In this document: positions 1 to 30,648 of the stretch, piece after piece
Numbering within the stretch: the stretch's first letter is position 1
How the letters are laid out: every line of letters begins with the position of its first letter
Notes under the pieces: generated by a model
The model's input: the letters and a program-made list of their open reading frames with translations, nothing else
Told to the model about the DNA's origin: nothing
Database searches by the model: none
Assembly (NCBI GenBank): GCA_026708285.1
Contig: JAPOVF010000216.1
Location: forward strand, 1 to 33,801
Direction: 5' to 3'
Length of the DNA: 33,801 nt
Source of the DNA: Acidobacteriota bacterium
Lineage (GTDB): Bacteria; Acidobacteriota; Thermoanaerobaculia; Multivoradales; Multivoraceae
Translations under genes and position numbers: made by a program

Positions 1-277
1 CGTGGAATCCCGGCAGCGCCCGGCACTCCTCCGGGGCGCCGTCGCCACCGGTGATGCGGCCGTCCTTGACCATCAGGTAGTACGCCGACATCTCGCGGCC
101 CCCCTCCAGCAGCCTCGCCGGCGGGTGGGTGTAGATCTCGCTGAATCCCCACGCGGTGTCGGGTGGCAGGTCGCCGTCTTGGAGGAGTTGGATTCCGTAC
201 CTGGCGCACGCCTCGCACCACGCCGTCGACCCGAACTCCCCGACCGGCTCGAGTTCGGCCACGTTGATCTCGCTCAC
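1..277 (-). CDS. Hypothetical protein, N-terminal part (runs off left edge)
   Basis: An open frame reads leftward from a GTG at 277-275 to the window edge without a stop, giving 92 codons. It begins V-S-E-I-N-V-A-E-L-E-P-V-G-E-F and contains W-C-E-A-C-A-R-Y-G, a proline-rich D-L-P-P-D-T-A-W-G-F stretch and Y-Y-L-M-V-K-D-G-R-I. A purine-rich stretch (GGGGAGAACGAGG on the minus strand) just upstream of the GTG supports this start. No signal peptide or transmembrane segment is visible, so it is probably cytoplasmic. I do not recognise the family. It is divergent from the TetR gene across 114 bases that hold a palindrome, so the regulator may control it too. The opposite-strand open frame over the same bases is low-complexity arginine-rich and looks like a shadow. 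Confidence 0.6.
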   Translation of the reverse strand, partial: MSEINVAELEPVGEFGSTAWCEACARYGIQLLQDGDLPPDTAWGFSEIYTHPPARLLEGGREMSAYYLMVKDGRITGGDGAPEECRALPGFH

Positions 278-391: not shown

Positions 392-1123
392 ATGACGAAT
401 CCCGAAGCCAAGAGTCCCAAGGACAACCGGCCGGCGGGGCGGCGCGAAGCGAACGTCGCCGCGAGGCGGCAGCGCATTCTCGAGTCCGCCCGCGCTCTCC
501 TCCAGGAGGCGGGGCCTGAGGGCCTCTCGATGCGCAAGCTGGCCCGCCAGGCCGGTCTGAGCGTGACCACGCTGTACAACCTGCTGGGTTCCCGCGAGGC
601 GATCCTGCAGGCCTTGATCAAGGACTCGCAGCAGCGCCTCGAGGCGCCGGCCGCCGACGCCGGAAGAGCGCGCGACCCCCTCAGGAGGGCAGCGCGAGCC
701 ATGGACGGCATTCTCCGGTACATCATCGACAACGGAGACCTGCTACGGCCACTCATCGCGGCCGACTTCAGGTCCGGCTCCTGGACAAGACTCGGCCAGC
801 AGGACGAGGGAGAGCACTTCAGATCCTCCAAGGACGCGATCCGCGCCGCGCTCACCGAGGCCCTCGGCGACGGTCAACTGCGGAACGTGGTCGGCCTGGA
901 GTTCCTCGAGGTACAGCTCCACGTCGGCTGGGAGCTGGCGCTCGACCTGTGGGCGTTCGGCGTTCTCGACGACGAGGCCTTCCGGCTCAGGAGTCTCAGC
1001 GGCTTCTACGTGACCCTGCTCGCCTTTTCGGAGCCGCATGTGCGCCCCCGCATCGAGAAGGAGCTCCGCCGTCTCGAACGCAGGCACTCCGCGGTAGGTG
1101 CGCGCCGCAGGCGCGCCGAGTAG
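392..1123 (+). CDS. TetR/AcrR family transcriptional regulator
   Basis: A 243-aa DNA-binding regulator. Residues 22-80 form a TetR_N domain: a basic lead-in (A-A-R-R-Q-R-I-L-E-S-A-R), then L-S-M-R-K-L-A-R-Q-A-G-L-S and V-T-T-L-Y-N-L-L-G-S-R-E-A-I-L, the usual helix-turn-helix with the Y-N/Y-xF-xS-K/R-E-type end. The rest (about 85-230) would be the ligand-binding helical domain, where sequence gives no clue to the ligand. A 20-residue polar N-terminal extension precedes the domain. The ATG at 392 has no evident Shine-Dalgarno; the predicted leader is very short. Its stop is only 23 bases before the sugar kinase start, so it probably heads the operon, sensing a pathway sugar or intermediate (inference). 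Confidence 0.93.
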   Translation: MTNPEAKSPKDNRPAGRREANVAARRQRILESARALLQEAGPEGLSMRKLARQAGLSVTTLYNLLGSREAILQALIKDSQQRLEAPAADAGRARDPLRRAARAMDGILRYIIDNGDLLRPLIAADFRSGSWTRLGQQDEGEHFRSSKDAIRAALTEALGDGQLRNVVGLEFLEVQLHVGWELALDLWAFGVLDDEAFRLRSLSGFYVTLLAFSEPHVRPRIEKELRRLERRHSAVGARRRRAE

Positions 1124-1146: not shown

Positions 1147-2115
1147 TTGAAAGGCCGCCTGGAGGTCGTTGGCCTCGGCCTCGCGATCGTCGATGTCGTG
1201 CTGCGGGTCGAACGCATGCCGGACTGGGAGGACCCCCGGGGTCTACTGGACTTCGCTCTCGGCGACGGCGGGCCCGCCGGCACGGCGTGCTTCGTCGCCT
1301 CGACGTTCGGACTACGCACCGGCTTCGTCGACACCGTGGGCGACGACGAACTCGGCGAGCACCGGCGGCGATCGCTCGAGCGGGCCGGGGTCGACACCAG
1401 CCGACTCGTACCCCGGGAAGGGCCGGAGGACCACGTGGTCGTCGTCTACGTCGACGCGGCAACGGGAGAGCGGGTGTTCTCGTTCCGGCGCGGCTTTCTC
1501 TCGCGGCCCCTGAGCGTCTCCGAACTCGACCGCGGCTACGTCGAGTCGGCGCGGATCCTCCATCTCGACGGCAGTCACGCCGCGGCGGCGCTCGCCGCGG
1601 CCCGCTGGATGAAGGAGTCGGGCGGCACCGTGGTGCTGGACGCCGCCGCCACCAGCCACAAGGTCCTCGAGCCGGCGCGGGCCCTGGTGGCCGAGACGGA
1701 CGTGCTGATCTGTGGCTCGGGCTTCGCTCCCATGCTCACGGGAGAAGAGGACGTCTGGAGGGCGGGCCGCGCCGCTCTCGACCTCGGACCGCGCGTGGTC
1801 GTGCAGACGGAGGGCGCGCGGGGCAGCTACTCGGTCGCCCGTACCGGGACGCGGGACGTCGAGTTCCACACGCCAGCGTTCGAAGTGGACGTCGTCGACA
1901 CGACGGGCGCCGGCGACACCTTTCATGGCGCCTACCTGGTGGGGCTCGCCAGGGGCTGGGATCTCGAGCGCTGCGCCTCGTTCTCGTCGGCGGTCGCGGC
2001 CCTGCACTGCACCGTGCTGGGCAACCGCAAGGGGATTCCTTCCATGGCGGAGGTCGAGGCCCTGATGGCCGCGCGGCCAGCGGAGAAGAAGACGGCCGCG
2101 GCGTCCACCTCGTAG
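1147..2115 (+). CDS. PfkB-family carbohydrate kinase (ketohexokinase-like)
   Basis: A 322-aa cytoplasmic ribokinase-fold sugar kinase that transfers the ATP gamma-phosphate to a sugar hydroxyl. The N-terminal signature G-G-P-A-G-T-A-C-F-V-A lies near residue 40, followed by T-G-F-V-D-T-V-G-D-D-E-L-G. The C-terminal PfkB signature is D-T-T-G-A-G-D-T-F-H-G-A at 251-262, with Asp257 the expected catalytic base and the GAG forming the anion hole. The start is TTG at 1147, preceded by GGGTAGG; there is no better in-frame ATG ahead of the first beta strand. The N-terminus (V-V-G-L-G-L-A-I-V-D-V-V-L-R-V-E) recalls ketohexokinases, which make ketose 1-phosphates. Fructokinase and 2-keto-3-deoxygluconate kinase are alternatives. 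It is followed 19 bases later by a ketose 3-epimerase and then an aldolase, which fits a ketose substrate. Confidence 0.88.
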   Translation: MKGRLEVVGLGLAIVDVVLRVERMPDWEDPRGLLDFALGDGGPAGTACFVASTFGLRTGFVDTVGDDELGEHRRRSLERAGVDTSRLVPREGPEDHVVVVYVDAATGERVFSFRRGFLSRPLSVSELDRGYVESARILHLDGSHAAAALAAARWMKESGGTVVLDAAATSHKVLEPARALVAETDVLICGSGFAPMLTGEEDVWRAGRAALDLGPRVVVQTEGARGSYSVARTGTRDVEFHTPAFEVDVVDTTGAGDTFHGAYLVGLARGWDLERCASFSSAVAALHCTVLGNRKGIPSMAEVEALMAARPAEKKTAAASTS

Positions 2116-2134
2116 CGGCTCAGGAGAGGGAAGC

Positions 2135-3124
2135 ATGAGCAGGATCGGAATCACCTTCAACTACTGGGGCAACGAGTGGATGGAGGACATCGAGGAGTAC
2201 GAGCGCCGGATGGCCCGGGCGGCCGCGATCGGCTTCGACCTGATGTCCTTTTCGCAGGACGTGCTCTTCCTGTACACCCCGGAGCAGAAGAAGCGCTTCG
2301 TCGCCTCGGCCGCGGAACACGGGATCCGGGTCAACTACATGGCGGGGCTCGGCCCCAAGCAGGACATCAACTCCGACTCGGAAGAGGACCGCCGCCGCGG
2401 CGTCGCGCACCTTCGCGCCCTCGCCGAGAAGGCGAGCGAGATGCAGCAGATGGCGGGCGGAGGCGGCGCCGACGTCGGCGGAGCGATCACGGGCGTCATG
2501 CGCCAGGGGCTCGACGGCCGCGACAAGGAGCGCTGCTGGGCGCACGCCGTCGGCGCCATGCGCGAGGCGATGAAGACCGCCGAGGATCTCGGCGTGACCT
2601 TCCACATCGAGGTCCTGAACCGCTTCGAGCACTTCCTCGTCAATACCTGCGACGAGGCCCTGCGCTTCCTCGACGACGTCGGCAGCCCGAACCTCAAGAT
2701 GATGCTCGACACGTACCACATGAACATCGAGGAGGACTCGCTGGGAGACGCGATCGTCCGCGCCGGCGACCAACTCGGCACCTTCCACATCGGCGAGAAC
2801 AACCGCCGGCCGCCCGGCCGGGGCCATATCCCCTGGGACGAGGTGGTGGCCGCGCTCCACGAGATCGACTACGACCGCGACACGGTGATGGAGCCGATCG
2901 TCCACATGGGCGGCGGCGTCGGCAACCTCCTCGCGGTGTGGCGCGACATGACCGGCGAGCGTGACCTCGACGAGGCGGCCCGCGAGGGGCTCGAGTTCTA
3001 CCGCGCCAAACTCGCTGCTGCACAAACTGGGTGCGCCGGCCTTCCGGCCGGCAGCCGGAGCGAAGCGACGGCCTCCGGTCGTTCCGGCGCGCCAGAATCG
3101 GAAGCGAACGGAGGCCACTCGTGA
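2135..3124 (+). CDS. Ketose 3-epimerase family (D-tagatose/D-psicose 3-epimerase-like)
   Basis: A TIM-barrel, metal-dependent sugar isomerase of 329 aa. It shows the full ligand set of the ketose 3-epimerase family: Glu159 in I-E-V-L-N-R-F-E, Asp192 in M-L-D-T-Y-H-M-N-I-E-E, His218 in H-I-G-E-N-N-R-R-P-P-G-R-G, and Glu253 in V-M-E-P. These families invert C3 of free ketoses (for example D-allulose and D-fructose) using Mn or Co, with the two glutamates as acid/base. No signal peptide is present, so it acts in the cytoplasm. AGGAGAGGGAAGC just before the ATG is a good ribosome-binding site. The family normally ends around residue 295; here about 30 extra residues from 298 on are translated from a palindromic repeat element (3026-3108). 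The stop overlaps the GTG start of the aldolase gene. Confidence 0.9.
   Translation: MSRIGITFNYWGNEWMEDIEEYERRMARAAAIGFDLMSFSQDVLFLYTPEQKKRFVASAAEHGIRVNYMAGLGPKQDINSDSEEDRRRGVAHLRALAEKASEMQQMAGGGGADVGGAITGVMRQGLDGRDKERCWAHAVGAMREAMKTAEDLGVTFHIEVLNRFEHFLVNTCDEALRFLDDVGSPNLKMMLDTYHMNIEEDSLGDAIVRAGDQLGTFHIGENNRRPPGRGHIPWDEVVAALHEIDYDRDTVMEPIVHMGGGVGNLLAVWRDMTGERDLDEAAREGLEFYRAKLAAAQTGCAGLPAGSRSEATASGRSGAPESEANGGHS
3026..3108. repeat. Palindromic repeat element inside the 3' end of the epimerase gene
   Basis: ACTGGGTGCGCCGG at 3026-3039 is identical to a 14-mer at 28674-28687 and nearly identical to anchors at 5100-5113 and, inverted, 4984-4997. It is followed by a strong hairpin (GCCGGCC/GGCCGGC around TTCC) and further GC-rich inverted segments. 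In all other places the element lies between genes. Here it is translated as the low-complexity C-terminal tail of the epimerase. Confidence 0.65.
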
Positions 3125-4146
3125 CCGCCGAGTCGACCCTGGCCGCGACCGCGCGCCGGATGGTCGCCCCCGGCAAGGGCATCTTCGCCGCCGACGTGCC
3201 GCTCAAGGGCCTGGTCCGCGGCTGGTGGGGCGAGTCGGCCCACGCCCGCACCGAAGACGAGGCGGCCGACTTCCAGGAGATGATCTGCCGCACCCCCGGG
3301 CTTGGCGAGCACCTGTCGAGCATCATCGTCTTCCCCGACGTGCTCGATCGGCGGGCCGGCGACGGCACGCCGCTCGCTGACCTCATCGGCGAGCGCGGCC
3401 TGCTGCTCGGCATCACGCCGACCACCGGCTGGCAGTTCCTCGGAGGCTCCGAGCACGAGTACGTGCCCCGCGGGCTCGACGGACTGGCGAAGCGGCTCGA
3501 AGACTGGCGCGAGCGCGGCGTGGCCTTCATCAAGTGGCGCGTGGCGGCGCGGGTGCGCCCCGGGCTTCCCACCGAGCGCGCGCTGGTCTCGAACGCCCGC
3601 AGCGTCGCCGAGGTCGCGGCGCTCGCGCACCAGTTCGATCTCGTCCCGATCGTCGAGCCAGAGGTCGAGATGAAGGGCGAGCACACGATCGATCGCCAGT
3701 TCGAGGTCACCGAGCGCTTCCTGCACCGGACCTTCGAGGCTCTGTACGAGCACGGCGTCGCGCCCGAGGAGATCGTGCTGAAGACGAACATGGTCGTCTC
3801 GGGCAGCGATTGTCCCGAGCAGGCCGGCGTCGACACCGTGGCGCGGGAGACGCTGCGCTGCCTGCGGCGGGTCGTGCCGCCCGCCCTGCCGGGGATCGGC
3901 TTCCTCTCCGGTGGCCAGTCGGACCTGGACGCGACGGCCCACCTCGACGCGATGAACCGGCTCGACCCGCAGCCCTGGGCGCTCAGCTTCTCGTTCGGCC
4001 GCGCCATCGGGCGCGCCCCGGTCGAGGCCTGGGACGGCAGGACCGACGAATCGAGCGGACAGGCGGCGCTGCACCACCGCGCCCGCATGAACGGACTGGC
4101 CACTCTGGGCGAGTGGTCGGTCGATCTGGAGACGGACGATGATTGA
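3121..4146 (+). CDS. Class I fructose-bisphosphate aldolase, divergent
   Basis: A 341-aa Schiff-base aldolase cleaving a ketose (bis)phosphate into dihydroxyacetone phosphate and an aldehyde. The family N-terminus T-L-A-A-T-A-R-R-M-V-A-P-G-K-G-I is clear. Catalytic residues in order: Asp25 (F-A-A-D), Lys138 (F-I-K-W-R), Glu179 (V-P-I-V-E-P-E) and the Schiff-base Lys221 (V-L-K-T-N-M-V), then the G-F-L-S-G-G-Q-S phosphate-binding loop. I chose the GTG at 3121 because GGAGG lies 8 bases upstream, it overlaps the preceding stop (GTGA), and the family homology begins there; the open frame further upstream is repeat-derived. Oddity: the usual A-A-D-E-S-T-G-S segment reads A-A-D-V-P-L-K-G, so phosphate recognition may differ. 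Preference for ketose 1-phosphates is plausible but unproven. Confidence 0.92.
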   Translation: MTAESTLAATARRMVAPGKGIFAADVPLKGLVRGWWGESAHARTEDEAADFQEMICRTPGLGEHLSSIIVFPDVLDRRAGDGTPLADLIGERGLLLGITPTTGWQFLGGSEHEYVPRGLDGLAKRLEDWRERGVAFIKWRVAARVRPGLPTERALVSNARSVAEVAALAHQFDLVPIVEPEVEMKGEHTIDRQFEVTERFLHRTFEALYEHGVAPEEIVLKTNMVVSGSDCPEQAGVDTVARETLRCLRRVVPPALPGIGFLSGGQSDLDATAHLDAMNRLDPQPWALSFSFGRAIGRAPVEAWDGRTDESSGQAALHHRARMNGLATLGEWSVDLETDDD

Positions 4147-4909
4147 CTTTTCAGGCCACAACGTGGTCGACCTCAGCCCGCGTATGGTCGGGCGCATCAC
4201 CCGGCTCGACGGCAGCGTCGAGGAGGGAAACAAGGACGTCTTCGGACTGCCGTGGATCCTCGAAGAGGGCCGGGTGCCCTACGACGACACGCTCTACACC
4301 CTGATCGGCGGCAAGGAGGGCGACGCCTACTGGCCGCCCGGACGGGTCAGCGGCCACTGCGGGGGATCGCACACCGAAGGCGGCAAGGGCCACATGGACC
4401 ACTGGGAAGGTCTGCCGGAGGGCATCCTCGGTCTCTGGGAGATGCCGCTCGACACGTTCTTCGGCCCGGCGGCGGTCTGCCACCTCGAGCAGCTCGAGCC
4501 GGTCGAGGAGGAGAACGAGGAAGGCGAACTGGTCAAGGTCGGCCAACCGATTCTCCCCGAGCACCTGTCCAACGTCGGCAAGGGCGACATCGTCATCCTC
4601 GGCAGCCCGTTCCGCGATAACGAGCAGCCGACCTTGCCCGCGGCAACGAGCAAGTGGCTCGCCGACACCGGCATCAAGCTGCTGGCGGTTGGCTACCCCG
4701 GCATTCGCTTCGAGTCGGACTTCCAGGCGCCGCAGCCCCACAACTCGCCGACCCACCGCAACATGCTGGGCAACAACATCCCGGTCTGCTACCCCCTCGT
4801 GAACGTCGAGAAGCTGAAGAAGGACCGCGCCTTCTACATCGGCATGCCGCTCAACGTGGAGCGGCTGGAAGCGACCTGGGTGCGGGCGATCGCGGTCGAG
4901 GAGGTGTAG
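4139..4909 (+). CDS. Cyclase-family protein (kynurenine formamidase-like fold)
   Basis: A 256-aa protein with the cyclase/formamidase layout: an N-terminal D-L-S-P-R-M segment, then S-G-H-C-G-G-S-H-T-E-G-G-K-G-H at 71-85, corresponding to the family motif HxGTHxDxPxH, and a late G-Y-P-G-I-R-F-E segment. Members are metal-dependent hydrolases acting on amides or lactones. His73 and His78 fit the metal site, but the canonical Asp is Glu80 and the proline is missing, so metal use or chemistry may differ. No signal peptide. The ATG at 4139 overlaps the aldolase stop by 8 bases, so it is translationally linked to the kinase/epimerase/aldolase set. A lactonase or dehydratase-like step in the same sugar pathway is inference. 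An acidic insert (V-E-E-E-N-E-E-G-E-L) lies near residue 122. Confidence 0.75.
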   Translation: MIDFSGHNVVDLSPRMVGRITRLDGSVEEGNKDVFGLPWILEEGRVPYDDTLYTLIGGKEGDAYWPPGRVSGHCGGSHTEGGKGHMDHWEGLPEGILGLWEMPLDTFFGPAAVCHLEQLEPVEEENEEGELVKVGQPILPEHLSNVGKGDIVILGSPFRDNEQPTLPAATSKWLADTGIKLLAVGYPGIRFESDFQAPQPHNSPTHRNMLGNNIPVCYPLVNVEKLKKDRAFYIGMPLNVERLEATWVRAIAVEEV

Positions 4910-5229
4910 GCAGGTTCACGAAGGAGCCGGCCTGCGGCCGGCGCGTGTCTCTGGCCGCCTTCGGCGGCAGCGGACCAGAAGGTCCGCGCACCCAGAGAGC
5001 GACCCCGGTTTGGCGGACTTCTCTACATGCGGTTGACATGACGCCGCTGCGGGCGCAACCCAACTGCAGCAGGGCATCCCGCAGAATCCCACGACCGTGC
5101 TCTGGGTGCGCGGACCCTTTGGTCCGCTTGGGGGCGGAGCCGCGAAGCGGCGCAGCCCCAGAAAGCAGCCGCCGGCCAACGGCCGGCGACCTTCCGCTGC
5201 ATCCGAGCGCCGCCGCGAAGCGGCGTACC
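4910..5229. repeat. Gene-free block of nested palindromes (inverted repeat pair)
   Basis: This 320-base gap holds no convincing gene. It contains two copies of a composite element in opposite orientation. Left copy: GCCGGCC/GGCCGGC at about 4926-4942, GCCGCC/GGCGGC, then CGGACC-AGAA-GGTCCG, ending in CGCACCCAGAG by 4997. Right copy: CTCTGGGTGCG from 5100, CGGACC-CTTT-GGTCCG, a GC-rich spacer, then CGCCGGCC/GGCCGGCG near 5180. The inner ends match as an inverted repeat of about 28 bases. Between them lies about 100 bases of unremarkable sequence. Short open frames here are repeat-derived. The hairpins could terminate both the cyclase operon and the convergent phosphoesterase gene. Confidence 0.7.
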
Positions 5230-5979
5230 CTACACGTACCCCTGCCGCGCAAACCGGGTCCAAGGTTCCCGTTCGCCGATGCCGTACCCACTGAGCAGTG
5301 CCTTCTTCAGCCACTCCCGGAACTCCGGAAACCCGTCGAGCGGCCCGACACGATCAAGCGCCTCGAGCCACGGACCGGGGTCGTACTCCACCTGGCGGTG
5401 ACGGAACACACCGTCCTCGATCACCCCATAGCAGGCCACTCTCCGGCCGCAGCGCGGCTGGCCGACGCTGCCTGGGTTGATGAACTCCTGGCCGCCGATC
5501 GCGCGCCGGAACTGGATGTGGGAATGGCCGAACAGCACCACGGGGCAGTCGGTGCCCCCGGCCAGGGCGGCCAACCGCTCGTCGGGCGTGTCGGGCAGCG
5601 CCTGCCGGGGCTCGTCAGGCAGCACGCCGTGGTGAAGAAACAGCCGCAAGCCGCCGATGGCGTACTCGCCCTCCGGCTGAAGACTGCGGAGCAGTTTCCA
5701 CCCAGGCGCGTCTAGTGTGCCGAGGATCCACCGCGTGTAGGCACGCCAAGGAGCCGGCCAGCCCTCGAACCGCTCCGGCTCGAACATCTCCACGTCGTGG
5801 TTTCCCTCGATCAACACCCCGTCGAGGCCCGCGAGCAGCGCCATCGTCTCGTTCGGCTGCGGGCCGGAGAGCACCGTGTCGCCGAGGAAGATCGTCGCGT
5901 CGGCGCCCTCTTCCTTCTCCAGCACCGCCGAGAGCGCCTCGGCGTTCCCGTGCACGTCGGCGATGACCAGGATCTTCAC
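5230..5979 (-). CDS. Calcineurin-like metallophosphoesterase (YfcE/MJ0936-like)
   Basis: A 249-aa cytoplasmic dinuclear-metal phosphoesterase. Metal motifs appear in family order: D-V-H-G-N (Asp8, His10), F-L-G-D-T-V, E-G-N-H-D, a histidine pair in L-F-L-H-H-G, and V-L-F-G-H-S-H. The GTG at 5979 starts exactly at the first strand (V-K-I-L-V-I-A-D). The frame stays open for another 74 codons upstream, but that stretch is arginine-rich, is antisense to the start of the divergent dioxygenase gene, and is unlikely to be translated. Small family members hydrolyse phosphodiesters or phosphomonoesters; the substrate here is unknown. Its 3' end lies next to the palindromic repeat block. Confidence 0.88.
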   Translation of the reverse strand: MKILVIADVHGNAEALSAVLEKEEGADATIFLGDTVLSGPQPNETMALLAGLDGVLIEGNHDVEMFEPERFEGWPAPWRAYTRWILGTLDAPGWKLLRSLQPEGEYAIGGLRLFLHHGVLPDEPRQALPDTPDERLAALAGGTDCPVVLFGHSHIQFRRAIGGQEFINPGSVGQPRCGRRVACYGVIEDGVFRHRQVEYDPGPWLEALDRVGPLDGFPEFREWLKKALLSGYGIGEREPWTRFARQGYV

Positions 5980-6838: not shown

Positions 6839-8764
6839 CTAGGGGCTGTACCAGATCGGCGACGACCAGGCCCGCTCCCGGATGGTAGCCGGCATGTCCC
6901 GGCGTGGCTCGACGCCCTCTCGCAGCGCATCCCAGGTCGACCAGCGGCAGGTCGGGTTCTCGAGCACCCGCACGTAGTAGAAGGCCCGATGCGCCGGGTT
7001 GAAGTTCGGGTCGGTCCACACGGCCCTGAGTTCGTTGGCCCCGACGTCCGCGCTGATGGCGCAGGTGGCGAGATCGACGCTCGCCCCGTTGTCCGGGCAG
7101 CGGTGGGTGGCGGGGTCGACGGCCGCGCCGTCCGAACAGGCGACGTCGTAGACCGACTCCTCGCTGTTCCCGTTCTCCGACCAACCCTTGATGATCTGTA
7201 GCCGGTCGAGCGGTGCGGCGAGCGGATCGCGCAGCGCCCAGGCCGCGAAGGTTGGTGCGGCCCCGTTCGAAGTGGACAGGTCGCCACCCATCGGCACGCC
7301 TTCCGCGTAGGCCCTGGCAAGGAAGTCGGGATCCTCCAGATCGGCGCGGGTGGTCCCCGCCCGGGCGAAGAAGCGCACGCGAATGCGCGGACCCGACGTC
7401 GCGAAGGTCTCCTTGCGGCGAAGGGCCTGGAAGATCGCCTCGCGCGTGTTCTCCTCCGCCCAGACGCCGGCGAGGCCGGACGCACCCCAGGTGTGGTAGT
7501 AGGTGTCGCGGTAGGTCCGGCCGGAGCCGTCGTTGGTACGCATGGAGGATCCGGACTGCTCCGAGGGATCGCCGTAGGTGGCGATCACGCCCGTGCCCGG
7601 CACCGAACCGCGCAACCGCGGCGTGGCGTCCAGAATGCCCGTCTTGGACCAGTAGTTGTCCTCCTCGAAGGAGCCGCCCGCGACGTGGCTGTCGCTCGAC
7701 CCGATCAGGCCGAATTCGTACGGATTCATGACGCCGCCGTCCGCGATCTTGAGGCCCCGTCGATAGGCGTCACGCACGTAGCTGCCTTCCAGCGGCAGGC
7801 TGAGGACCACGGACCCGATCCTGTACGGCATGATCTCGAATCCGGCCCACTCGTCATTGCGCGACAGCGCCGGATGGGTGTCGGAGGTCCCCTTGACCTG
7901 CGTGATCTCGACCACCGGCTCGTTGCGCGAGCGCAACTCCGAGTAGGCATCGTCGATCGCACCACCGTCGTAGTACTCGAGCTCGAACATGCGACCCCCT
8001 GAGGCGTTCGAGTTGTGCGGAATGGCCAGCGAGTCGATGCCCCGGGCGCGCCACCCGTCCATTGCGGCCCAGAGAGCTTCAGGGTTGGAGGAGTCGACGC
8101 GGTTGAAGGGAAGTACGGGAGCCGCGGCGCCGCGGAAGATCACGTTGCGGTGCAGGTTGTTTCCCCCTTCGCCGGCGGAGGTGTATTCGTAGCCGATGAA
8201 GGCCGTGAAGGTCCCGGGATCGTTGTGCCGGTTGGCGGCCGCCTGGATCTCCTCCCAGGCGTCGCGCACGATCTCCATGTTCAGGTGCTCTTCGGTTCCC
8301 GGTTCCGCGTTCCAGTAGGGGCCTACGGCCATGAAGTTGCCGCGTCTCTCATCGGCGGAGCGAGCATTGCGCACGCCCTCGGCAATGGGGTGATCGTAGG
8401 CAGGTGAAGAGGGATCGGTCATCGCCGCGAGCATGCCGAGATACCAGCCGTGATCGGCCACGGCCTGAAAGTCGAGTGGCCGGTCGAGTTTCATCTCGAA
8501 GCCTGCCGGATGCAGGATCGCGCCGCCCTTGGCGAACTCGTAGGCCGCGTTGGGATCCGCCGTGGTGCCGAACACAAAGGCGTCGAGTGAGAAGCGTGTG
8601 TGGACATGGAGATCGCCGAAGTAGGCGTTCCGCGTCGGATTGGGTGTCGGGGCCGCGGCGTCGGGCAGGGAGTCCGCCACCGGCGCCTCGGCTGCCGGCT
8701 CCTCGCCGGAGCCGCAGCCGATGAGTAGAAGGGCCGCCGCCAGCAGACCCAACATGCATCTCAT
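6839..8764 (-). CDS. DUF3604 lipoprotein (PHP-like metal site)
   Basis: A 641-aa exported protein of the DUF3604 family. The lipobox L-L-I-G-C places the lipidated cysteine at residue 17, followed by an Ala/Pro/Glu linker. The core begins F-G-D-L-H-V-H-T-R-F-S-L-D-A (His53, His55), then V-A-D-H-G-W, G-Y-E-Y-T-S-A, I-P-H-N-S-N, V-K-G-T-S-D-T-H-P and G-S-S-D-S-H, the pattern of a PHP-type polynuclear metal hydrolase. The C-terminal third has a conserved cysteine-containing region (D-V-A-C-S-D-G, H-R-C-P-D-N-G, L-A-T-C-A-I-S, P-T-C-R-W-S-T-W). The ATG at 8764 is preceded by AGGGG at good spacing; a GTG two codons earlier is too close. It is last in the leftward exported operon and paralogous to the protein at 28814-30616. 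The family has no settled function; phosphoesterase-like hydrolysis is inference. Confidence 0.9.
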   Translation of the reverse strand: MRCMLGLLAAALLLIGCGSGEEPAAEAPVADSLPDAAAPTPNPTRNAYFGDLHVHTRFSLDAFVFGTTADPNAAYEFAKGGAILHPAGFEMKLDRPLDFQAVADHGWYLGMLAAMTDPSSPAYDHPIAEGVRNARSADERRGNFMAVGPYWNAEPGTEEHLNMEIVRDAWEEIQAAANRHNDPGTFTAFIGYEYTSAGEGGNNLHRNVIFRGAAAPVLPFNRVDSSNPEALWAAMDGWRARGIDSLAIPHNSNASGGRMFELEYYDGGAIDDAYSELRSRNEPVVEITQVKGTSDTHPALSRNDEWAGFEIMPYRIGSVVLSLPLEGSYVRDAYRRGLKIADGGVMNPYEFGLIGSSDSHVAGGSFEEDNYWSKTGILDATPRLRGSVPGTGVIATYGDPSEQSGSSMRTNDGSGRTYRDTYYHTWGASGLAGVWAEENTREAIFQALRRKETFATSGPRIRVRFFARAGTTRADLEDPDFLARAYAEGVPMGGDLSTSNGAAPTFAAWALRDPLAAPLDRLQIIKGWSENGNSEESVYDVACSDGAAVDPATHRCPDNGASVDLATCAISADVGANELRAVWTDPNFNPAHRAFYYVRVLENPTCRWSTWDALREGVEPRRDMPATIRERAWSSPIWYSP

Positions 8765-8781
8765 GGCCACCCCTGGATTCG

Positions 8782-9849: not shown

Positions 9850-11669
9850 CAGTGACCCCCTGCGCCTTGTTGGGCAGACACTCTGCGCTCAGGCAGAGCG
9901 AAGACGAAGAGGGTGTTGCCCGAGCTCGGGCGCAGCTCGGGGGTGAGCGGCGAGCCAAGCGCCGCCGACCCAGGGCCGGTCGAAGCGACGACATACTGCC
10001 GTCCGTCGACCCCATAGCTGATCGGAAAGCCGGAGACCGCCGAGCCGAGATTGATCTCCCACAGGACGTCGCCGGTTTCCTGGTCCAGAGCCTTGAAACG
10101 CCCGTTCGCATCGCCCACGAAGACCAGTCCGCCGCCGCTCGCGAACAGCGCCTGGGTTCCGGCCCGCTGCTCGTGAGTCCAGACGATCTTTCCGGTCTTC
10201 ACCGAAACGGCGTAGACGCTACCCAACTGGTCGGTGCCGGGGGCGATCTGGTCATCCACGTTCAGAGCGTAGAGGGCGAGACGTTCCTCCAGGCTGGCCG
10301 TCATCTGCGCGCAGGTGTTGCGCAGGGGGAAGAACATGTTGCCGGTCAGCGGGCTGTAGGCGCCGGCCTGCCAATCCCTGCCGCCGAAATAGCTCGGACA
10401 GACGAGGATGGTCTGGCCGAGCTCGGTGAACACCGTCTCGACGTTCTCGGTCACCTCTCCGGTGGCGCCGTCGATGTCGCTGATCACGTTCTGCGTCACG
10501 GTGGGAGTGGCCCAGAGAAACTCTCCGGTCTCGCGGTCGAGGGTGTAGACCACGCCGGTCTTGCCTGGAATCCCGGTCGTCACCTTGCGCACTTCTCCCG
10601 GCTCGAGACGGGGGTTGATCCACGGCACCTCGCTCGGGTCGGGCGCGACCGCCGTGTCGACCAGGATGCGTTCGAAGGGATGGTCGAGATCCCAGTGGTC
10701 GATGAGATGCTGGTAGTACCAGGCGATCTCGCCGGTGGCCACCTCGAGCGCCAGGGTGGAGTTGTGGTAGAGGTGCCTGTTCTTCGCGCCGCCGAGGAGG
10801 AACTTCGGCGCCGGCGAGGTCACCGACGTTCCGATGTAGAGGAGTTCGAGGGCGGGATCGTAGCTCGGCACCATCCAGGTGCCGACGTGCCTGCGATCCG
10901 CGAAGGGCACCTCACCCCAGCTCTCGTCTCCCGGCTCGCCGGGCGCGGGAATGGTGCGCCGGCGCCACAGCTCCCTGCCGCTGTGCGGATCGTGGGCGGT
11001 GACGACACACGCCTCCGGCCCGGCGAGGCGCCGGCAACTGCGCCCGGAGATCACCTTGCCGTTGGCGATGATGGGACCGGAACTCTGGATCGCCGGATGC
11101 GTCCGGTAGTCGAGGATCTCCGTGTCCCAGACCAGCTCGCCCGTCGTCGCGTCGAGGGCGAAGATGTGCTCGTCGTAACTGGTATCGATGATCAACCTGT
11201 CGTAGATGGCCAGATTGCGGTTGTTGGCGCCGAGGCTGCCGACGTAGCTGGCAACGTCGTCGGGAAGGTCGCGGCGATGCTCCCAGATCAGGTCGCCGCT
11301 CACCGCGTCGATCGCCTGAATGACGTCCTTCGGGTTGGGCAGGTAGAGCACTCCGTCGTAGACCAGCGGAGTCCCCTGCTGGCGACCCTCGCTCATGCCT
11401 CGCGACCAGACGAGGCGCAGCTCGTTCACATTCCCGCGGTCGATCTGGTCGAGCGGGCTGTAGCCCCAGCCGTCGAGCGTGCGGCGCCACATGAGCCAGT
11501 CGTCATCGCTGGGGTTCTGCAGCATCCCGTCGGTGACGGCGATGAACTCCTCCGCCGCCCGAACCTGGGCGGCGACGGACGAGAGCGCCACCAGGACGAT
11601 CGAAACTGTGGCTAACCTGCCGGCCTGTCCAGCCCTGCGCCGACTACAGCCGGATGTCCAGGACATCAT
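9849..11669 (-). CDS. PQQ-dependent dehydrogenase-like eight-bladed propeller, periplasmic
   Basis: A 606-aa exported quinoprotein-type dehydrogenase. A signal segment (R-L-A-T-V-S-I-V-L-V-A-L-S-S-V) ends near A-A-Q-V-R-A-A-E-E-F. Repeated propeller-blade tryptophan motifs are seen throughout, such as A-V-S-G-D-L-I-W-E, A-T-T-G-E-L-V-W-D, V-K-T-G-K-I-V-W-T and Q-E-T-G-D-V-L-W-E. Y-Y-Q-H-L-I-D-H-W-D-L-D corresponds to the active-site region of PQQ alcohol dehydrogenases, with the aspartate expected as base. I do not see the adjacent-cysteine pair of methanol dehydrogenases, nor a C-terminal haem CxxCH. Known relatives oxidise alcohols or sugars and pass electrons to the respiratory chain. The start overlaps the isomerase stop by 26 bases and could be placed slightly downstream; its Shine-Dalgarno is weak. 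Confidence 0.85.
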   Translation of the reverse strand: MMSWTSGCSRRRAGQAGRLATVSIVLVALSSVAAQVRAAEEFIAVTDGMLQNPSDDDWLMWRRTLDGWGYSPLDQIDRGNVNELRLVWSRGMSEGRQQGTPLVYDGVLYLPNPKDVIQAIDAVSGDLIWEHRRDLPDDVASYVGSLGANNRNLAIYDRLIIDTSYDEHIFALDATTGELVWDTEILDYRTHPAIQSSGPIIANGKVISGRSCRRLAGPEACVVTAHDPHSGRELWRRRTIPAPGEPGDESWGEVPFADRRHVGTWMVPSYDPALELLYIGTSVTSPAPKFLLGGAKNRHLYHNSTLALEVATGEIAWYYQHLIDHWDLDHPFERILVDTAVAPDPSEVPWINPRLEPGEVRKVTTGIPGKTGVVYTLDRETGEFLWATPTVTQNVISDIDGATGEVTENVETVFTELGQTILVCPSYFGGRDWQAGAYSPLTGNMFFPLRNTCAQMTASLEERLALYALNVDDQIAPGTDQLGSVYAVSVKTGKIVWTHEQRAGTQALFASGGGLVFVGDANGRFKALDQETGDVLWEINLGSAVSGFPISYGVDGRQYVVASTGPGSAALGSPLTPELRPSSGNTLFVFALPERRVSAQQGAGGH

Positions 11670-12597
11670 TGAGGTACTGGACGTTGTGGTCCACGTAGTC
11701 GGCCACGCTTCCTTCCTCGGGGCGTGGTCTGCCGTAGTCGAGGCTCACCCAGCCACTGAACTTCTTTTCTCGAAGGATCTTCGTGAACGCCACGAAATCC
11801 ACACCGCCCGCGCCCATCCTCTTGTAGAGGCCGACTTGGCGGTGCTCCTCGCGAGTAGGTGAGGGGCCTTGGTACCCGCGGTACTTCGCCGGTATGTCCT
11901 TGAAGTGGATGGCCGCTACGCGGTCGTAGTGCTCGCTGAGGAACTTGACCGGATCCATGCCGGCAAGTGTCAGGTGCGCTGTATCCGCGGTCAGGTAGAC
12001 GTATCGCGGGTCGGTCAGCTCGAGGACGCGATCGACCTCCTCCTGCCGTTCGAAGGGTGACCAGAGGTGAGGGTGAGGGGCCAGCCTTACTCCAGCTTCG
12101 GCGGTGCGCTTGCCCAGCTCGTTCAGGGCCTTCGCCATCGTCCGCAGTTGCTCGTCGCCGATCGTCCCTCCCTCACGTTGGGGGCCCACGTTGATCTTGA
12201 AATGCGAACAACCGAAGTGGGCAAGGAAATCACGCGCAAACGTGGCGTGTGCGGCGATCGTCTCCTCCACCCTGGAAGGATCGGTGAAGTTGTCGGCCAT
12301 CGATGCGCCGCCATTGGAGCATGTCGCCATGCGAATGCCGGCCGCATCCAGCAGCTCCGCGAGGGCCTGCGGCCGGTCGACGTACTTGACGATGCTGCCC
12401 ATGTAGGGCTCGATGCCCTCGAAGCCCAGGCGACCGCACTCGCGTATCGCTTCCTCAACGCTGTCGGGCCAGATGTTGCCAACGTGGGCGACGCGGAACG
12501 TTCTCCCTGAGTCGGGGCGCGCAAACACCCTTCCCGGTGCGGAGTGGAGAACCGTCGCCGCCAGGCCCGAGGCCAGGAACTCTCTTCGGTTCATCAT
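11644..12597 (-). CDS. Tat-exported sugar phosphate isomerase/epimerase-like TIM barrel
   Basis: A 317-aa xylose-isomerase-like TIM-barrel protein. The N-terminus M-M-N-R-R-E-F-L-A-S-G-L-A-A-T-V-L is a classic Tat signal, so it is folded, probably with metal, before export. Core features: W-P-D-S-V-E-E-A-I-R-E-C-G-R-L-G-F-E-G-I-E, then Y-L-T-A-D-T-A-H and A-I-H-F-K-D-I-P, which supply the Asp and His metal ligands of the fold. GGGAGG lies 6 to 9 bases before the paired ATGs at 12597 and 12594. It is 14 bases after the long DUF3604 gene and overlaps the PQQ dehydrogenase gene. Tat-exported members of this family occur in periplasmic sugar oxidation and cleavage clusters in other bacteria; an isomerase or eliminase acting on an oxidised sugar here is inference. 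Confidence 0.87.
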   Translation of the reverse strand: MMNRREFLASGLAATVLHSAPGRVFARPDSGRTFRVAHVGNIWPDSVEEAIRECGRLGFEGIEPYMGSIVKYVDRPQALAELLDAAGIRMATCSNGGASMADNFTDPSRVEETIAAHATFARDFLAHFGCSHFKINVGPQREGGTIGDEQLRTMAKALNELGKRTAEAGVRLAPHPHLWSPFERQEEVDRVLELTDPRYVYLTADTAHLTLAGMDPVKFLSEHYDRVAAIHFKDIPAKYRGYQGPSPTREEHRQVGLYKRMGAGGVDFVAFTKILREKKFSGWVSLDYGRPRPEEGSVADYVDHNVQYLNDVLDIRL

Positions 12598-12611
12598 GTT
12601 GGCGCCTCCCC

Positions 12612-15203
12612 TCAGTTGGAATCGCCGGCGGGGCTCTCGCCCACCCAGAAGGGGCTCGACCACGCCATCGCGCCGTCAACCTGGCGCACCCGCACATAGT
12701 AGTAGTCGCCGGCCTGCGGATTGTCAAGATCGGCGTATCGAAAGTCCTGATCGAAGTCGCCCTGGTCGCTGACCACCTGGACCGAGAGGGCATCGGTGTG
12801 ATCCAGCACTCGAACCTCCCGTCGGTCGACCTGACCGCCGAGGCTTCCGAGCCGAAAGGTCTCGACCCGGGCGGGAAGCCGCTGCGGCTCGCGCTGGTCG
12901 CTTCCCGTTCCGCGTGTCTCCTGCGTCGACTCCATGTCCACGATCACGCGCGTGTCGGCGTCGGCGGCGCGCAGCCGAAGCAGAATCGCCGTAGTGCGCC
13001 CTCGCGTGAGCATTCTGAACCGGATCTCGTTTCCCGTCCGCTGCGTGGCGTAGGAACCCGGATGGCGGAACCAGGGGTCCCGGTGACCGATGACCTCCGC
13101 GCCCTCGACGCGAATGACGCCCAGCCACGGCCGACCGCCCCTTGGGCCCCGGCGATCGCCCACGACCTCTGTCGACGCCTCGAAGCTCACCTGCACGACC
13201 GCGGCGCTCGTCACCTCAGCTTCGAGGTACCGCCGCGAATACACGATGCGGCCGTTCTTGACCACATCGATGGCGTCGATCGGAGCCGTGCCGTACACCC
13301 GGCATTCCAGCTCTCTCCGGTTCGTGGCGGGCTGCTCCCGTCCCATGGGGACTCCGTTGAGCCACGCGTCGAGGACGATGCGTTCGCCGGTCGTCGCATA
13401 CGTCGCCCGACTGCGCAGCGCGTTGAAGATCGCTTCACCCGTGTTCTCCGCCGCCAGGACCGCGGCGAGCCCCCCCAGTTGCGTACCCGAAGACTGTCCG
13501 GGCCCGCCCATGAAGCCGTAGCCCGGATGCCCGGTGTGGTTGTCCGACGCGCCGACGAACCCGATCCGGAACCCGTTCTGCAGGTACCGGTTTCCGAACC
13601 AGTCGAATGTGCCGTGGCTGGACTGGATCTCGACCAGCTTCTGCATCTCGGCGTCGCTGCGGGTCCAGTCGCCCGGCTGGTGGGCGTGCGGAATGATCAG
13701 CACGTCGTCACTCCGGTTCGCCGCTCGCAGTTCCGCGTAGAGCTCGTCGAGCAGAGGCTTTTCCTGCGTGCCGACGCGTCGTCGTCCAGGCGTGTCGCGG
13801 AAGAAGACGTTGTGGTGTCCGCCGTCGGCCATCTGATTCGTCCACTCGAACCCGAGAATCGGCGTGAACCGCCCTGGAGCGCGGTACTCCTCGGCAAGCT
13901 CCTGCAGCGTCCGCCATTCGCCGTCGTCGAGCCAGCGGTCGTGCTCGGACAATGTGAGAAAGTCGAGTCGGGCCGCGTCACGCCCGAAGCGGAAGTAGCC
14001 ATCGGCGGAACCCTGTCCTTCCGCCATCCCGGTGTGACCGTGCGTCTCTCCCCAGTAGATGCGCCGAGCCGGATTCCTCTCGACGAGGACGGGGTTGCTG
14101 GCCCCTTGCAAGGTCCCGTCGGCGGTGCGCACCGCGAACCGATGGACGCCCTCGGAGCGGATGGCGACGTTCTCGAGCTGCACCAGCGCTTCCGACTCGG
14201 CCGAAAGCGTCCGGAAGGGCTCGCCGTCCAGCAGCACCTCCAGTTCGCCTGGACCGGCGGATGCAACGTTGCGAAAGCGGTCCTCGGCGCGAATCGTCAG
14301 GGTGAACTCCTCGCCCGGTTCGACCACCGACGGCGCAATCGCGTTGAGAAAGCTCGCTTTCTCCTCTCCGACGACCTCGAACGACGGCCAGTCGGGCCAA
14401 AAGAGCACGCCGTCTCCGTCCAGATCCACCAGGAACGGAAGTGGGACCTCGTCGTTGGACCACTCCTGCAGCTTCATGCCCGGCCCGCCGCCGGATCGAT
14501 CCCCGTACGTCACGGTCACCGTGTCTCCCTCTTGCAGCGCGGCGCCGCTCAGACGGAATCCGATCGCGGTTCCGGTCAGTCCAACCGGGTAGGTCGTCCA
14601 GGGCTCGACGGCGGAGAACCGGGCGTTCGGATTCGAAGAGCGGACGGTGACGAAGTCGGCGTCCGTGGCGCGCGTCGAGAGGGCGCCGGTTCGCCGCCCC
14701 TTGCCAAGGATCAGCCCGCCGCCTTCGGCGATCGGCCGGTCCCCGACGGAGTAGGTCTGCGTGACCGTGACGTACCCTCCCACCGGAAAGGGCCCCTCGG
14801 AAGAGATCGTCAGGCTGCCCAGGGCTCCAGAGGCCTCGTCCAGGACCTGGAGTTGCCGGACCATGTAGCCGATGAGATCCGAAATGCGGTCGACCGGGAT
14901 TGGTTGACTGATACGCCCACGCAAGGCCGGGTTCAGGAAGGACGCGTTCTGAGGGAAGTCATCAGGGATGCGGCCGCGCTCTCGCGCGTATGCGTTCCCC
15001 CATTCCCAGAGAGTCCGGAACCTGGAGATCAGTTCGTCGACGTCGCCGGTCGGAACAGCGGCCTCTTCCACCAGCGCGTCGACTCGGGCGCGCAGTTCTT
15101 GCGACAGGTAGTCGCCCGAAATGCGCCGGTCCTGAGCCGCTACGACACCGGCAAGAAGAGCCAGAACGGCGATGGACGCGACGCGAACGAATCTGGTGAA
15201 CAC
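12612..15203 (-). CDS. Large DUF3604 protein with a long N-terminal region, exported
   Basis: An 863-aa exported protein. From the GTG at 15203 it starts V-F-T-R-F-V-R-V-A-S-I-A-V-L-A-L-L-A-G-V, then V-A-A-Q-D, a Sec signal. Residues about 25-380 are not part of the DUF3604 core; they look beta-rich, with one Ig-like stretch (V-E-P-G-E-E-F-T-L-T-I-R-A-E-D) near 290. The core follows: Y-W-G-E-T-H-G-H-T-G (His388, His390), L-S-E-H-D-R-W, H-H-N-V-F-F-R-D, I-P-H-A-H-Q-P and G-A-S-D-N-H-T-G. The frame is open up to 15278, but that start would overlap the divergent gene; a TACACT box at 15223-15218 would leave an 8-base leader for the 15203 start. It is the first gene of the leftward exported operon. 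Biochemical function is unknown. Confidence 0.85.
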   Translation of the reverse strand: MFTRFVRVASIAVLALLAGVVAAQDRRISGDYLSQELRARVDALVEEAAVPTGDVDELISRFRTLWEWGNAYARERGRIPDDFPQNASFLNPALRGRISQPIPVDRISDLIGYMVRQLQVLDEASGALGSLTISSEGPFPVGGYVTVTQTYSVGDRPIAEGGGLILGKGRRTGALSTRATDADFVTVRSSNPNARFSAVEPWTTYPVGLTGTAIGFRLSGAALQEGDTVTVTYGDRSGGGPGMKLQEWSNDEVPLPFLVDLDGDGVLFWPDWPSFEVVGEEKASFLNAIAPSVVEPGEEFTLTIRAEDRFRNVASAGPGELEVLLDGEPFRTLSAESEALVQLENVAIRSEGVHRFAVRTADGTLQGASNPVLVERNPARRIYWGETHGHTGMAEGQGSADGYFRFGRDAARLDFLTLSEHDRWLDDGEWRTLQELAEEYRAPGRFTPILGFEWTNQMADGGHHNVFFRDTPGRRRVGTQEKPLLDELYAELRAANRSDDVLIIPHAHQPGDWTRSDAEMQKLVEIQSSHGTFDWFGNRYLQNGFRIGFVGASDNHTGHPGYGFMGGPGQSSGTQLGGLAAVLAAENTGEAIFNALRSRATYATTGERIVLDAWLNGVPMGREQPATNRRELECRVYGTAPIDAIDVVKNGRIVYSRRYLEAEVTSAAVVQVSFEASTEVVGDRRGPRGGRPWLGVIRVEGAEVIGHRDPWFRHPGSYATQRTGNEIRFRMLTRGRTTAILLRLRAADADTRVIVDMESTQETRGTGSDQREPQRLPARVETFRLGSLGGQVDRREVRVLDHTDALSVQVVSDQGDFDQDFRYADLDNPQAGDYYYVRVRQVDGAMAWSSPFWVGESPAGDSN

Positions 15204-15266
15204 GCTGGGTGTCTGCCAGTGTACTAGGCTGGAAGCCAGCCGACTCTGCCATCTGGAGGATCTCAG
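15204..15266. promoter_or_regulatory. Divergent promoter region with a 15-bp palindrome
   Basis: These 63 bases separate the leftward exported operon from the rightward secreted-protein gene. GGCTGGAAGCCAGCC at 15227-15241 is a perfect 6-bp-arm inverted repeat. On the minus strand TACACT at 15223-15218 resembles a -10 box; no convincing -35 accompanies it. GGAGG at about 15254-15258 serves the rightward gene. An operator shared by both directions is a guess. Confidence 0.3.
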
Positions 15267-16405: not shown

Positions 16406-16435
16406 TTGAAGATCAAACAGGATTGGCGCTACACT
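16406..16435 (+). promoter_or_regulatory. Sigma70-like promoter of the TonB receptor gene
   Basis: TTGAAG at 16406-16411 and TACACT at 16430-16435 are separated by 18 bases, good matches to TTGACA and TATAAT. The region around them is locally A/T-richer than the surroundings. It would give a leader of about 65 bases before the GTG start at 16508. Confidence 0.5.
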
Positions 16436-16507
16436 GCTAGTTGCGCGGGGCCTCTGACAGCGCCCGCGGAGACCGAGGAGGAGAGACAGACCAAGGAGGG
16501 ACCAGCC

Positions 16508-19237: not shown

Positions 19238-19272
19238 GCGCGTCGAGCGACAGTGGGCTTCGTTGAGATTCC

Positions 19273-19309
19273 AAGACACCGGCGGCTCAGCCGCCGGTGT
19301 CTTTCTTTT
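19273..19309 (+). terminator. Strong intrinsic terminator of the TonB receptor gene
   Basis: A perfect 14-bp stem (AAGACACCGGCGGC at 19273-19286 with its complement at 19290-19303) around a TCA loop, followed by a T-rich run (TTTCTTTT, 19302-19309). It lies 35 bases after the receptor stop and just before the sulfatase gene, whose frame is open right through it. Confidence 0.93.
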
Positions 19310-19333
19310 GGACAAGCGCTCTCTCGACGAGAA

Positions 19334-21771: not shown

Positions 21772-21796
21772 GGAGCCCGCATGATACGGAGCTTCT

Positions 21797-23236: not shown

Positions 23237-23273
23237 GATGGTCGGAACCCTAACGCAGATGGAGAAACGGGCC

Positions 23274-24758: not shown

Positions 24759-24762
24759 GCGC

Positions 24763-25692: not shown

Positions 25693-25736
25693 CTGGGCGA
25701 CTCTACAACTGCTACGGTCTAAAGGAGGAGGAGCCA

Positions 25737-30616: not shown

Positions 30617-30648
30617 GGTGGGCTCCGATTCAGCCGGTTCTCCGAGCG

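What the first reader, a model, noticed from the sequence alone, without database searches (positions are those of the whole stretch)
1147..4909. Possible undescribed ketose pathway: kinase, 3-epimerase, class I aldolase and cyclase in one TetR-led operon
Four genes overlap or nearly touch (gaps of 19 bases or less). The epimerase carries the full D-tagatose/D-psicose 3-epimerase ligand set, the kinase looks ketohexokinase-like, and the aldolase is class I. Together they could convert a rare ketose to a ketose 1-phosphate and then to dihydroxyacetone phosphate plus an aldehyde, without a phosphofructokinase, like the animal liver fructose route. The cyclase-family gene has no place in the known route and may add a lactone or acid-sugar step. 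No transporter is encoded alongside.
Basis: partly seen in the sequence, partly recalled or inferred. Interest (0 to 1): 0.75.

Follow-up and report, generated by a model that had tools for sequence, protein, structure and literature searches.

The report
Ketose 1-phosphate pathway with remodelled aldolase
A four-gene bacterial operon probably breaks down an unusual sugar by reshaping it, adding one phosphate and splitting it with an aldolase that seems to have lost the usual second phosphate-binding site; which sugar it handles, and what its fourth enzyme does, are still unknown.

Summary
Four genes (PfkB kinase, ketose 3-epimerase, PF00274 class I aldolase, cyclase-fold protein) lie end to end at 1147-4909 in an Acidobacteriota genome. 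Their order is kept in 11 of 11 same-genus regions fetched. One relative lacks all four enzymes but keeps the TetR; another has epimerase and aldolase in one reading frame.

The main new result is the aldolase. Its clade (relatives down to 57% identity) keeps the Schiff-base lysine and C1-phosphate residues. The lysine recalled to hold the distal (C6) phosphate in FBP aldolases is threonine in 62 of 62 clade rows and lysine in 162 of 162 ordinary relatives; most neighbouring distal-site residues are changed too. The kinase's closest solved relative is sulfofructose kinase, a C1 ketose kinase. A separate FbaB-type aldolase exists in the genome. This supports: ketose, 3-epimer, ketose 1-phosphate, DHAP plus aldehyde. 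Matching contig lengths suggest that kinase, aldolase and cyclase are also linked outside the genus (in Dehalococcoidia: kinase and aldolase only).

Substrate, fate of the aldehyde and the cyclase's reaction are unknown. The epimerase's distal pocket differs from tagatose epimerase, and the TetR's role is doubtful. New variant of a known kind; no activity was tested.

The parts
392..1123 (+). TetR-family regulator gene; adjacent in the 11 regions fetched, but kept in G014, which lacks the four enzymes, so its link to them is uncertain
   Evidence: PF00440 40.3 bits; 69-96% identity in relatives; retained in G014 (L195 3174-3824)
1147..2115 (+). PfkB-family sugar kinase, proposed ketose 1-kinase
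   Evidence: PF00294 145.1 bits; best solved relative sulfofructose kinase 7ag6 E=2.5e-28, with a profile 1.2e-38 against 1.2e-30 for the next, a ribokinase
2135..3124 (+). ketose 3-epimerase of the D-tagatose/D-psicose 3-epimerase type
   Evidence: NCBIfam D-psicose 3-epimerase 279.7 bits (cut-off 300); PDB D-tagatose 3-epimerase E=1.9e-59; metal and O1-O3 residues kept, distal pocket changed
3121..4146 (+). class I (PF00274) aldolase with a changed distal phosphate site, proposed ketose 1-phosphate aldolase
   Evidence: PF00274 292.1 bits, NF033379 323.1 bits; residue tallies; one side of a branch, support 100/100
4139..4909 (+). cyclase-fold (PF04199-like) putative metal-dependent hydrolase, reaction unknown
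   Evidence: PF04199 21.1 bits, below cut-off; predicted model matches metal-dependent hydrolases, kynurenine formamidase and isatin hydrolase, best E=1.5e-11, TM about 0.5

Best explanation
A catabolic operon for a neutral ketose. The epimerase inverts C3 to give the configuration that the aldolase accepts. The PfkB kinase phosphorylates C1. The aldolase, a PF00274 class I enzyme that no longer binds a distal phosphate, splits the ketose 1-phosphate into dihydroxyacetone phosphate, which enters glycolysis, and an unphosphorylated aldehyde (glyceraldehyde, glycolaldehyde or similar). The cyclase-fold protein probably hydrolyses a lactone, ester or amide before or after these steps. SHOWN by sequence: families, gene order, retained catalytic residues, changed distal-site residues, a separate FbaB-type aldolase gene. 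INFERRED: C1 regiochemistry, direction, neutrality of the substrate, and the cyclase's role.
For: (1) Aldolase residues (rabbit numbering and roles recalled): Schiff-base K229 63 of 63, E187 64 of 64, K146 62 of 62, C1-phosphate S271 64 of 64 and R303 64 of 64 kept; distal K107 is T in 62 of 62 against K in 162 of 162 ordinary relatives; S35 is Ser in 1 of 61 (Thr in 4) against Ser in 162 of 162. (2) The clade is one side of a branch, support 100/100, stem 0.52. (3) Kinase nearest sulfofructose kinase, which makes a ketose 1-phosphate (PMC9594981 passages); two of its database relatives bear that name from a source (P0323, P0356). (4) Order kept in 11 of 11 regions; 4-base epimerase-aldolase overlap in 11 of 12 loci, own included, and one open frame in the twelfth. 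(5) G014 lacks all four enzymes between conserved flanks. (6) Kinase, aldolase and cyclase clusters share identical longest-contig lengths more often than shifted lengths do. (7) A separate FbaB-type aldolase in the genome.
Against: No activity is known. The epimerase's distal pocket (F7 to T, W113 region, F248 to I) differs from tagatose epimerase, so its substrate is open. No dehydrogenase or triokinase for the aldehyde is in the operon. The kinase passes no NCBIfam equivalog cut-off, and most database relatives with a name are called ribokinase. Residue roles in the aldolase were recalled; three paper searches found no source for them. R148 is kept in the clade, and the columns of S38, K41 and R42 lie beside an indel; R42 is kept in 6 of 61. 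The aldolase passes the FBP aldolase cut-off. The epimerase was not tested in distant lineages. Linkage outside the genus rests on matching contig lengths, not on read DNA. In G008 the epimerase match is split in two, and the kinase matches in G002 and G010 include a TAG.
Confidence: 0.62

Rival explanations
1. A special case of the same chemistry, on a pentulose: the epimerase interconverts D-ribulose and D-xylulose, the kinase makes xylulose 1-phosphate, and the aldolase gives DHAP plus glycolaldehyde. (It overlaps with the best explanation, so the odds do not add up to one.)
For: The altered epimerase distal pocket and the altered aldolase distal site would allow a shorter ketose; tagatose 3-epimerases are recalled to accept pentuloses.
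Against: No glycolaldehyde-handling gene in the operon; nothing separates five from six carbons by sequence.
Confidence: 0.25
2. A sulfo-sugar route: a 6-sulfo-ketose is phosphorylated at C1 and split to DHAP and sulfolactaldehyde, as in the sulfo-EMP pathway.
For: Closest solved kinase is sulfofructose kinase; the window holds a sulfatase gene and a sulfatase-modifying-factor gene and more sulfatase-like ORFs by eye.
Against: The sulfo-EMP aldolases described in PMC9594981 are PF01791 or PF01116 (passages), not PF00274; the aldolase clade lost positive charges at K107 and K41 and mostly at R42, which argues against an anionic end group; no sulfoquinovose isomerase or sulfolactaldehyde reductase in the operon (not searched genome-wide). 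Sulfonate-binding kinase residues (recalled) do not look conserved in the alignment.
Confidence: 0.06
3. The aldolase is simply an FBP aldolase for glycolysis and the neighbours are incidental.
For: Over the NCBIfam FBP aldolase cut-off (323.1 against 250 bits); no class II aldolase in 21 genus genomes; phosphofructokinase in 19 of 21.
Against: FbaB-type aldolase elsewhere in the own genome (610 bits against cut-off 327), with PF01791 matches in 21 of 21 genus genomes (only the own genome's was typed further); G014 has phosphofructokinase but lacks this aldolase; distal-site residues changed.
Confidence: 0.06
4. A biosynthetic use: the aldolase condenses DHAP with an aldehyde to build a rare sugar phosphate, the other enzymes tailoring it.
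For: Aldolases are reversible (recalled); no inner-membrane transporter was seen among the window genes given to Pfam.
Against: A free-sugar 3-epimerase and a sugar kinase point to intake of a free ketose; no later biosynthetic enzyme recognised beside them.
Confidence: 0.08

Closest known systems
Liver fructose route (ketohexokinase, aldolase B, triokinase) (recalled)
   Same: C1 phosphorylation, then PF00274 class I cleavage of a ketose 1-phosphate to DHAP plus aldehyde
   Different: Aldolase B also cleaves FBP (recalled); here the distal phosphate residues are changed, a 3-epimerase and a cyclase-fold protein are added, no triokinase in the operon
Sulfo-EMP pathway of E. coli (YihS, YihV, YihT) (PMC9594981, passages)
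   Same: PfkB-family C1 ketose kinase plus dedicated 1-phosphate aldolase giving DHAP
   Different: Aldolase from PF00274, not PF01791; 3-epimerase instead of the YihS isomerase; distal site less cationic
D-tagatose / D-psicose 3-epimerases
   Same: Metal quartet and O1-O3 residues
   Different: F7, W113 region and F248 equivalents changed; below the NCBIfam equivalog cut-off
Kynurenine formamidase / isatin hydrolase / cyclase family PF04199
   Same: Predicted fold and a histidine-rich motif
   Different: 13-19% identity in the 33 best structural matches; Glu where the HxGTHxDxPxH motif (recalled) has Asp; Pfam score below cut-off

Membership tests
Class I FBP aldolase (PF00274 / NF033379) | Schiff-base lysine and catalytic residues (roles recalled) | tested here: met
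   K229 63 of 63, E187 64 of 64, K146 62 of 62 in the clade
Class I FBP aldolase (PF00274 / NF033379) | Curated model score | tested here: met
   323.1 bits, cut-off 250
Class I FBP aldolase (PF00274 / NF033379) | Distal (C6) phosphate site, K107 and S35 (roles recalled) | tested here: not met
   K107 0 of 62, S35 1 of 61 in the clade; 162 of 162 each in ordinary relatives. R148, invariant in both sets, is kept
D-psicose/D-tagatose 3-epimerase | Metal ligands E152, D185, H211, E246 and O1-O3 residues E158, H188, R217 (roles recalled) | tested here: met
   All aligned and identical
D-psicose/D-tagatose 3-epimerase | Distal pocket F7, W113, F248 (roles recalled) | tested here: not met
   T, G beside a gap, I; W15 is kept
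D-psicose/D-tagatose 3-epimerase | NCBIfam equivalog score | tested here: not met
   279.7 bits, cut-off 300
Sulfofructose kinase | PfkB family and closest solved relative | tested here: met
   PF00294; 7ag6 best
Sulfofructose kinase | Sulfonate-binding residues | tested here: inconclusive
   Recalled positions do not look conserved in the alignment; structure paper not held
Ketohexokinase | Closest solved relative is ketohexokinase | tested here: not met
   Best ketohexokinase E=8.6e-12 against 2.5e-28 for sulfofructose kinase
PF04199 cyclase | Pfam curated score | tested here: not met
   21.1 bits, cut-off 23.1; the G015 homologue has no Pfam match at E 0.001
PF04199 cyclase | Fold | tested here: met
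   33 PDB chains at E <= 0.001: metal-dependent hydrolases, kynurenine formamidases, isatin hydrolases, a cyclase-phosphotriesterase, a PF04199 cyclase and MJ0783; TM 0.45-0.58 to the query, rmsd 8.5-12.7; model mean pLDDT 80.1
Sulfo-EMP pathway | Aldolase of PF01791 or PF01116 | tested here: not met
   Operon aldolase is PF00274; families from PMC9594981 passages
Any ketose pathway | Demonstrated activity of the enzymes | not testable with these tools
   needs assays

The most novel reading that the evidence does not exclude
A ketose 1-phosphate pathway not yet described, shared by Acidobacteriota and Chloroflexota (Dehalococcoidia), built on a PF00274 aldolase clade that gave up bisphosphate binding to specialise on a neutral ketose 1-phosphate, and needing a cyclase-fold hydrolase (for instance a lactonase or formamidase step) as an integral enzyme.
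Probability: 0.37. Interest if true: 0.66.

Novelty: new variant of a known kind. Interest (0 to 1): 0.5.

Why it matters
Where sources name relatives of these proteins, the names are mostly fructose-bisphosphate aldolase, ribokinase and kynurenine formamidase, so models built from annotation would place them in glycolysis, ribose use and tryptophan breakdown. If right, a clade of class I aldolases has changed specificity by altering its second phosphate site, which can be tested directly with purified enzymes, and lineages known mostly from metagenomes have a sugar route that has not been assigned.

Tried and rejected
Viral contigs: the aldolase profile found 36 loci, at most 44% identical in their best segment; 30 of them were long enough for the tallies and all 30 have K107. 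The cyclase profile found none there. Plasmids: no cyclase match. Cyclase in a sample of the class of the SAR86 genome (321 genomes) and of the phylum of a Gemmatimonadetes genome (200 genomes): none at E 1e-20, but those searches had no positive control. PHROGs: no match for aldolase or cyclase.

The idea that the aldolase is the glycolytic enzyme was set low. The sulfofructose idea was kept as a low rival. Hybrid proteins P0040 (transporter start joined to aldolase) and P0208 (binding-protein piece joined to cyclase) look like assembly or rearrangement chimeras and were not used as evidence for a transporter; P0040 and some fragments remain as rows in the and 83 tallies. In one search two length matches, P0046-P0191 and P0057-P0123, may be chance because their identities disagree. 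All 60 aldolase rows P0001-P0060 and all 120 listed kinase rows, but only 81 of the 120 listed cyclase rows, were typed into.

Papers: ten searches. Judged by listed titles and starts of abstracts, none describes this gene set. Only PMC9594981 was opened, for passages. This is not proof that it is not in print. The structure-prediction job for the aldolase was not used.
Full report
WHAT IS THERE. The window is contig C253 of a genome of 4.99 Mb in 402 contigs. Its closest named protein relatives come from Acidobacteria, Acidobacteriota and Holophagales bacteria, and a genome of the same genus (G013, locus L021) is named Thermoanaerobaculia bacterium. Four genes run end to end on the + strand: PfkB kinase 1147-2115, epimerase 2135-3124, class I aldolase 3121-4146, cyclase-fold protein 4139-4909, after a TetR gene at 392-1123. 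Gaps are 19, -4 and -8 bases. The cyclase scores under its Pfam cut-off, but its AlphaFold model (mean pLDDT 80.1, weak at residues 32-42 and 56-74) matches 33 PDB chains at E <= 0.001, nearly all described as cyclases, metal-dependent hydrolases, kynurenine formamidases or isatin hydrolases, with modest TM scores (0.45-0.58) and 13-19% identity.

CONSERVATION IN THE GENUS. I fetched about 20 kb from 11 of the 18 other genus genomes with an aldolase match; in 11 of 11, TetR, kinase, epimerase, aldolase and cyclase follow in this order on one strand. In G002 (L157) a 0.9 kb insert separates kinase and epimerase, and a gap of that size also shows in G010. Counting all 21 genus genomes, own included: aldolase 19 (G020 a fragment), kinase 19 (G008 a fragment), epimerase 18 (G008 in two pieces). 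The cyclase search sampled 15 of them and found 14. Two absences look like contig ends: G020 has the cyclase and the end of the aldolase at the end of a contig, and the G011 kinase sits 13 bases from a contig end. The kinase matches of G002 and G010 include a TAG. The epimerase and aldolase overlap by 4 bases in 11 of 12 loci, own included; in G015 (L154) both lie in one open frame of 716 aa, which may be one protein or two coupled starts. In three loci the aldolase-cyclase gap is 71-144 bases, and the projected kinase start is TTG in 9 of 12.

A COHERENT ABSENCE. G014 (7 contigs, 96% complete) has none of the four enzymes. Its site still has the two upstream genes, the TetR and the downstream phosphoesterase (L195). 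Between TetR and phosphoesterase lie a short stretch matching the start of the kinase gene and a PF01636-family gene that is 93% identical to the one sitting between kinase and epimerase in G002. The simplest reading is that the kinase was lost on one side of that gene and the epimerase, aldolase and cyclase on the other, as expected if the four work together. It also shows that the TetR outlives the enzymes, so its role as their regulator is doubtful.

BEYOND THE GENUS. In 396 genomes sampled from the phylum the cyclase was found in 1 of 210 genera. Among 98 relatives the only aldolase matches outside the genus were four at 43-45% identity. Yet the protein database holds aldolases at 57-81% identity, then a drop to about 50% and lower (only the best 120 are listed). 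Longest-contig lengths of aldolase, kinase and cyclase clusters coincide exactly in 14 aldolase-kinase, 10 aldolase-cyclase and 6 kinase-cyclase pairs, against means of 0.51, 0.46 and 0.76 (at most 3) over 100 shifted comparisons. Eleven of the 14 aldolase-kinase pairs have aldolase identity of 80% or less, and four sets share all three lengths, three of them at 67-71% aldolase identity. One aldolase-kinase pair, P0043 and P0352, is named Dehalococcoidia; its cyclase was not among the matches. This is indirect evidence of linkage; the DNA was not read. The epimerase was not tested this way.

THE ALDOLASE. It lies in a group that is one side of a branch with support 100/100 and a stem of 0.52 (79 rows: 34 of the group, 45 others). 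Tallies use 65 clade rows, gaps left out, and 162 ordinary rows, with three sister rows (P0063, P0066, P0079) set aside. Catalytic and C1-phosphate residues are kept (D33 in 60 of 61, the exception being the hybrid P0040). K107 is threonine in 62 of 62 and lysine in 162 of 162. S35 is serine in 1 of 61 (threonine in 4) and in 162 of 162. K41 is kept in 0 of 61 against 155 of 162, R42 in 6 of 61 against 162 of 162, and position 38 is Leu, Phe, Met or Gln in 61 of 61 against Thr in 162 of 162; an indel makes these three columns less sure. R148 is kept in both sets. The three sister rows also lack K107 (serine there). That K107, S35 and S38 hold the distal phosphate, and S271 and R303 the C1 phosphate, is recalled; no paper found confirmed it. 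The simplest inference is a substrate with a C1 phosphate and a neutral far end.

THE KINASE AND EPIMERASE. The kinase's best solved relative is sulfofructose kinase (2.5e-28; profile 1.2e-38), then ribokinase; the best ketohexokinase has 8.6e-12. Sulfofructose kinase makes sulfofructose 1-phosphate (PMC9594981 passages). NCBIfam prefers 5-dehydro-2-deoxygluconokinase and ribokinase, far below cut-off, so the substrate cannot be named. The epimerase keeps the metal and O1-O3 residues of tagatose 3-epimerase, but F7, W113 and F248 are changed, so the ketose may differ in length or end group.

PLACE IN METABOLISM. No class II FBP aldolase was found in 21 genus genomes (control rang in 11 of 14). 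A PF01791 match is present in 21 of 21, and in the window's own genome one of them is an FbaB-type FBP aldolase and the other a deoxyribose-phosphate aldolase. Phosphofructokinase is in 19 of 21. So glycolysis need not depend on the operon aldolase. No transporter is in the operon; an outer-membrane TonB-dependent receptor gene lies at 16406-19237, too far to assign, and not every flanking gene was typed.

VERDICT. The substrate, the fate of the aldehyde and the cyclase's reaction remain open. It is a new variant of a known kind of pathway.

Noticed in passing
L154 8261-10411 (G015): Epimerase and aldolase lie in one open frame of 716 aa, with roughly 80 aa between the two domains.
   Followed up: partly
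L195 3957-4823 (G014) and L157 7582-8442 (G002): A PF01636 phosphotransferase-family gene sits between kinase and epimerase in G002 and alone at the emptied site in G014.
   Followed up: partly
P0063, P0066, P0079: Sister lineage of the aldolase clade also lacks K107 and S35 (S and G) and has Ala for G302: possibly a second group of aldolases with changed specificity; P0079 lies on a 6.1 Mb contig.
   Followed up: partly
window 19253-28663: A sulfatase gene (19253-20812) and a sulfatase-modifying-factor gene (20809-21771) by Pfam, with more sulfatase-like ORFs by eye; DUF3604 gene at 6839-8770, similar-looking ORFs at 12612-15278 and 28814-30652 by eye.
   Followed up: no
window 11644-12663: Second PF01261 (xylose isomerase-like) gene, near a 2-hydroxyacid dehydrogenase gene and a PQQ-type ORF, kept downstream in L155 and L157.
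   Followed up: no
window 3025-3115 and 4925-5230: GC-rich repeat-like sequence in the epimerase's C-terminal tail and after the cyclase gene, seen by eye only.
   Followed up: no
window 1-277, - strand: Start of a divergent gene (about 210 aa in relatives, no Pfam match), read by eye here; a conserved stretch near AASTTGRAACARTGTAMCRT lies between it and TetR.
   Followed up: partly
L115-L150: 36 IMG/VR contigs encode PF00274-type class I aldolase relatives.
   Followed up: no
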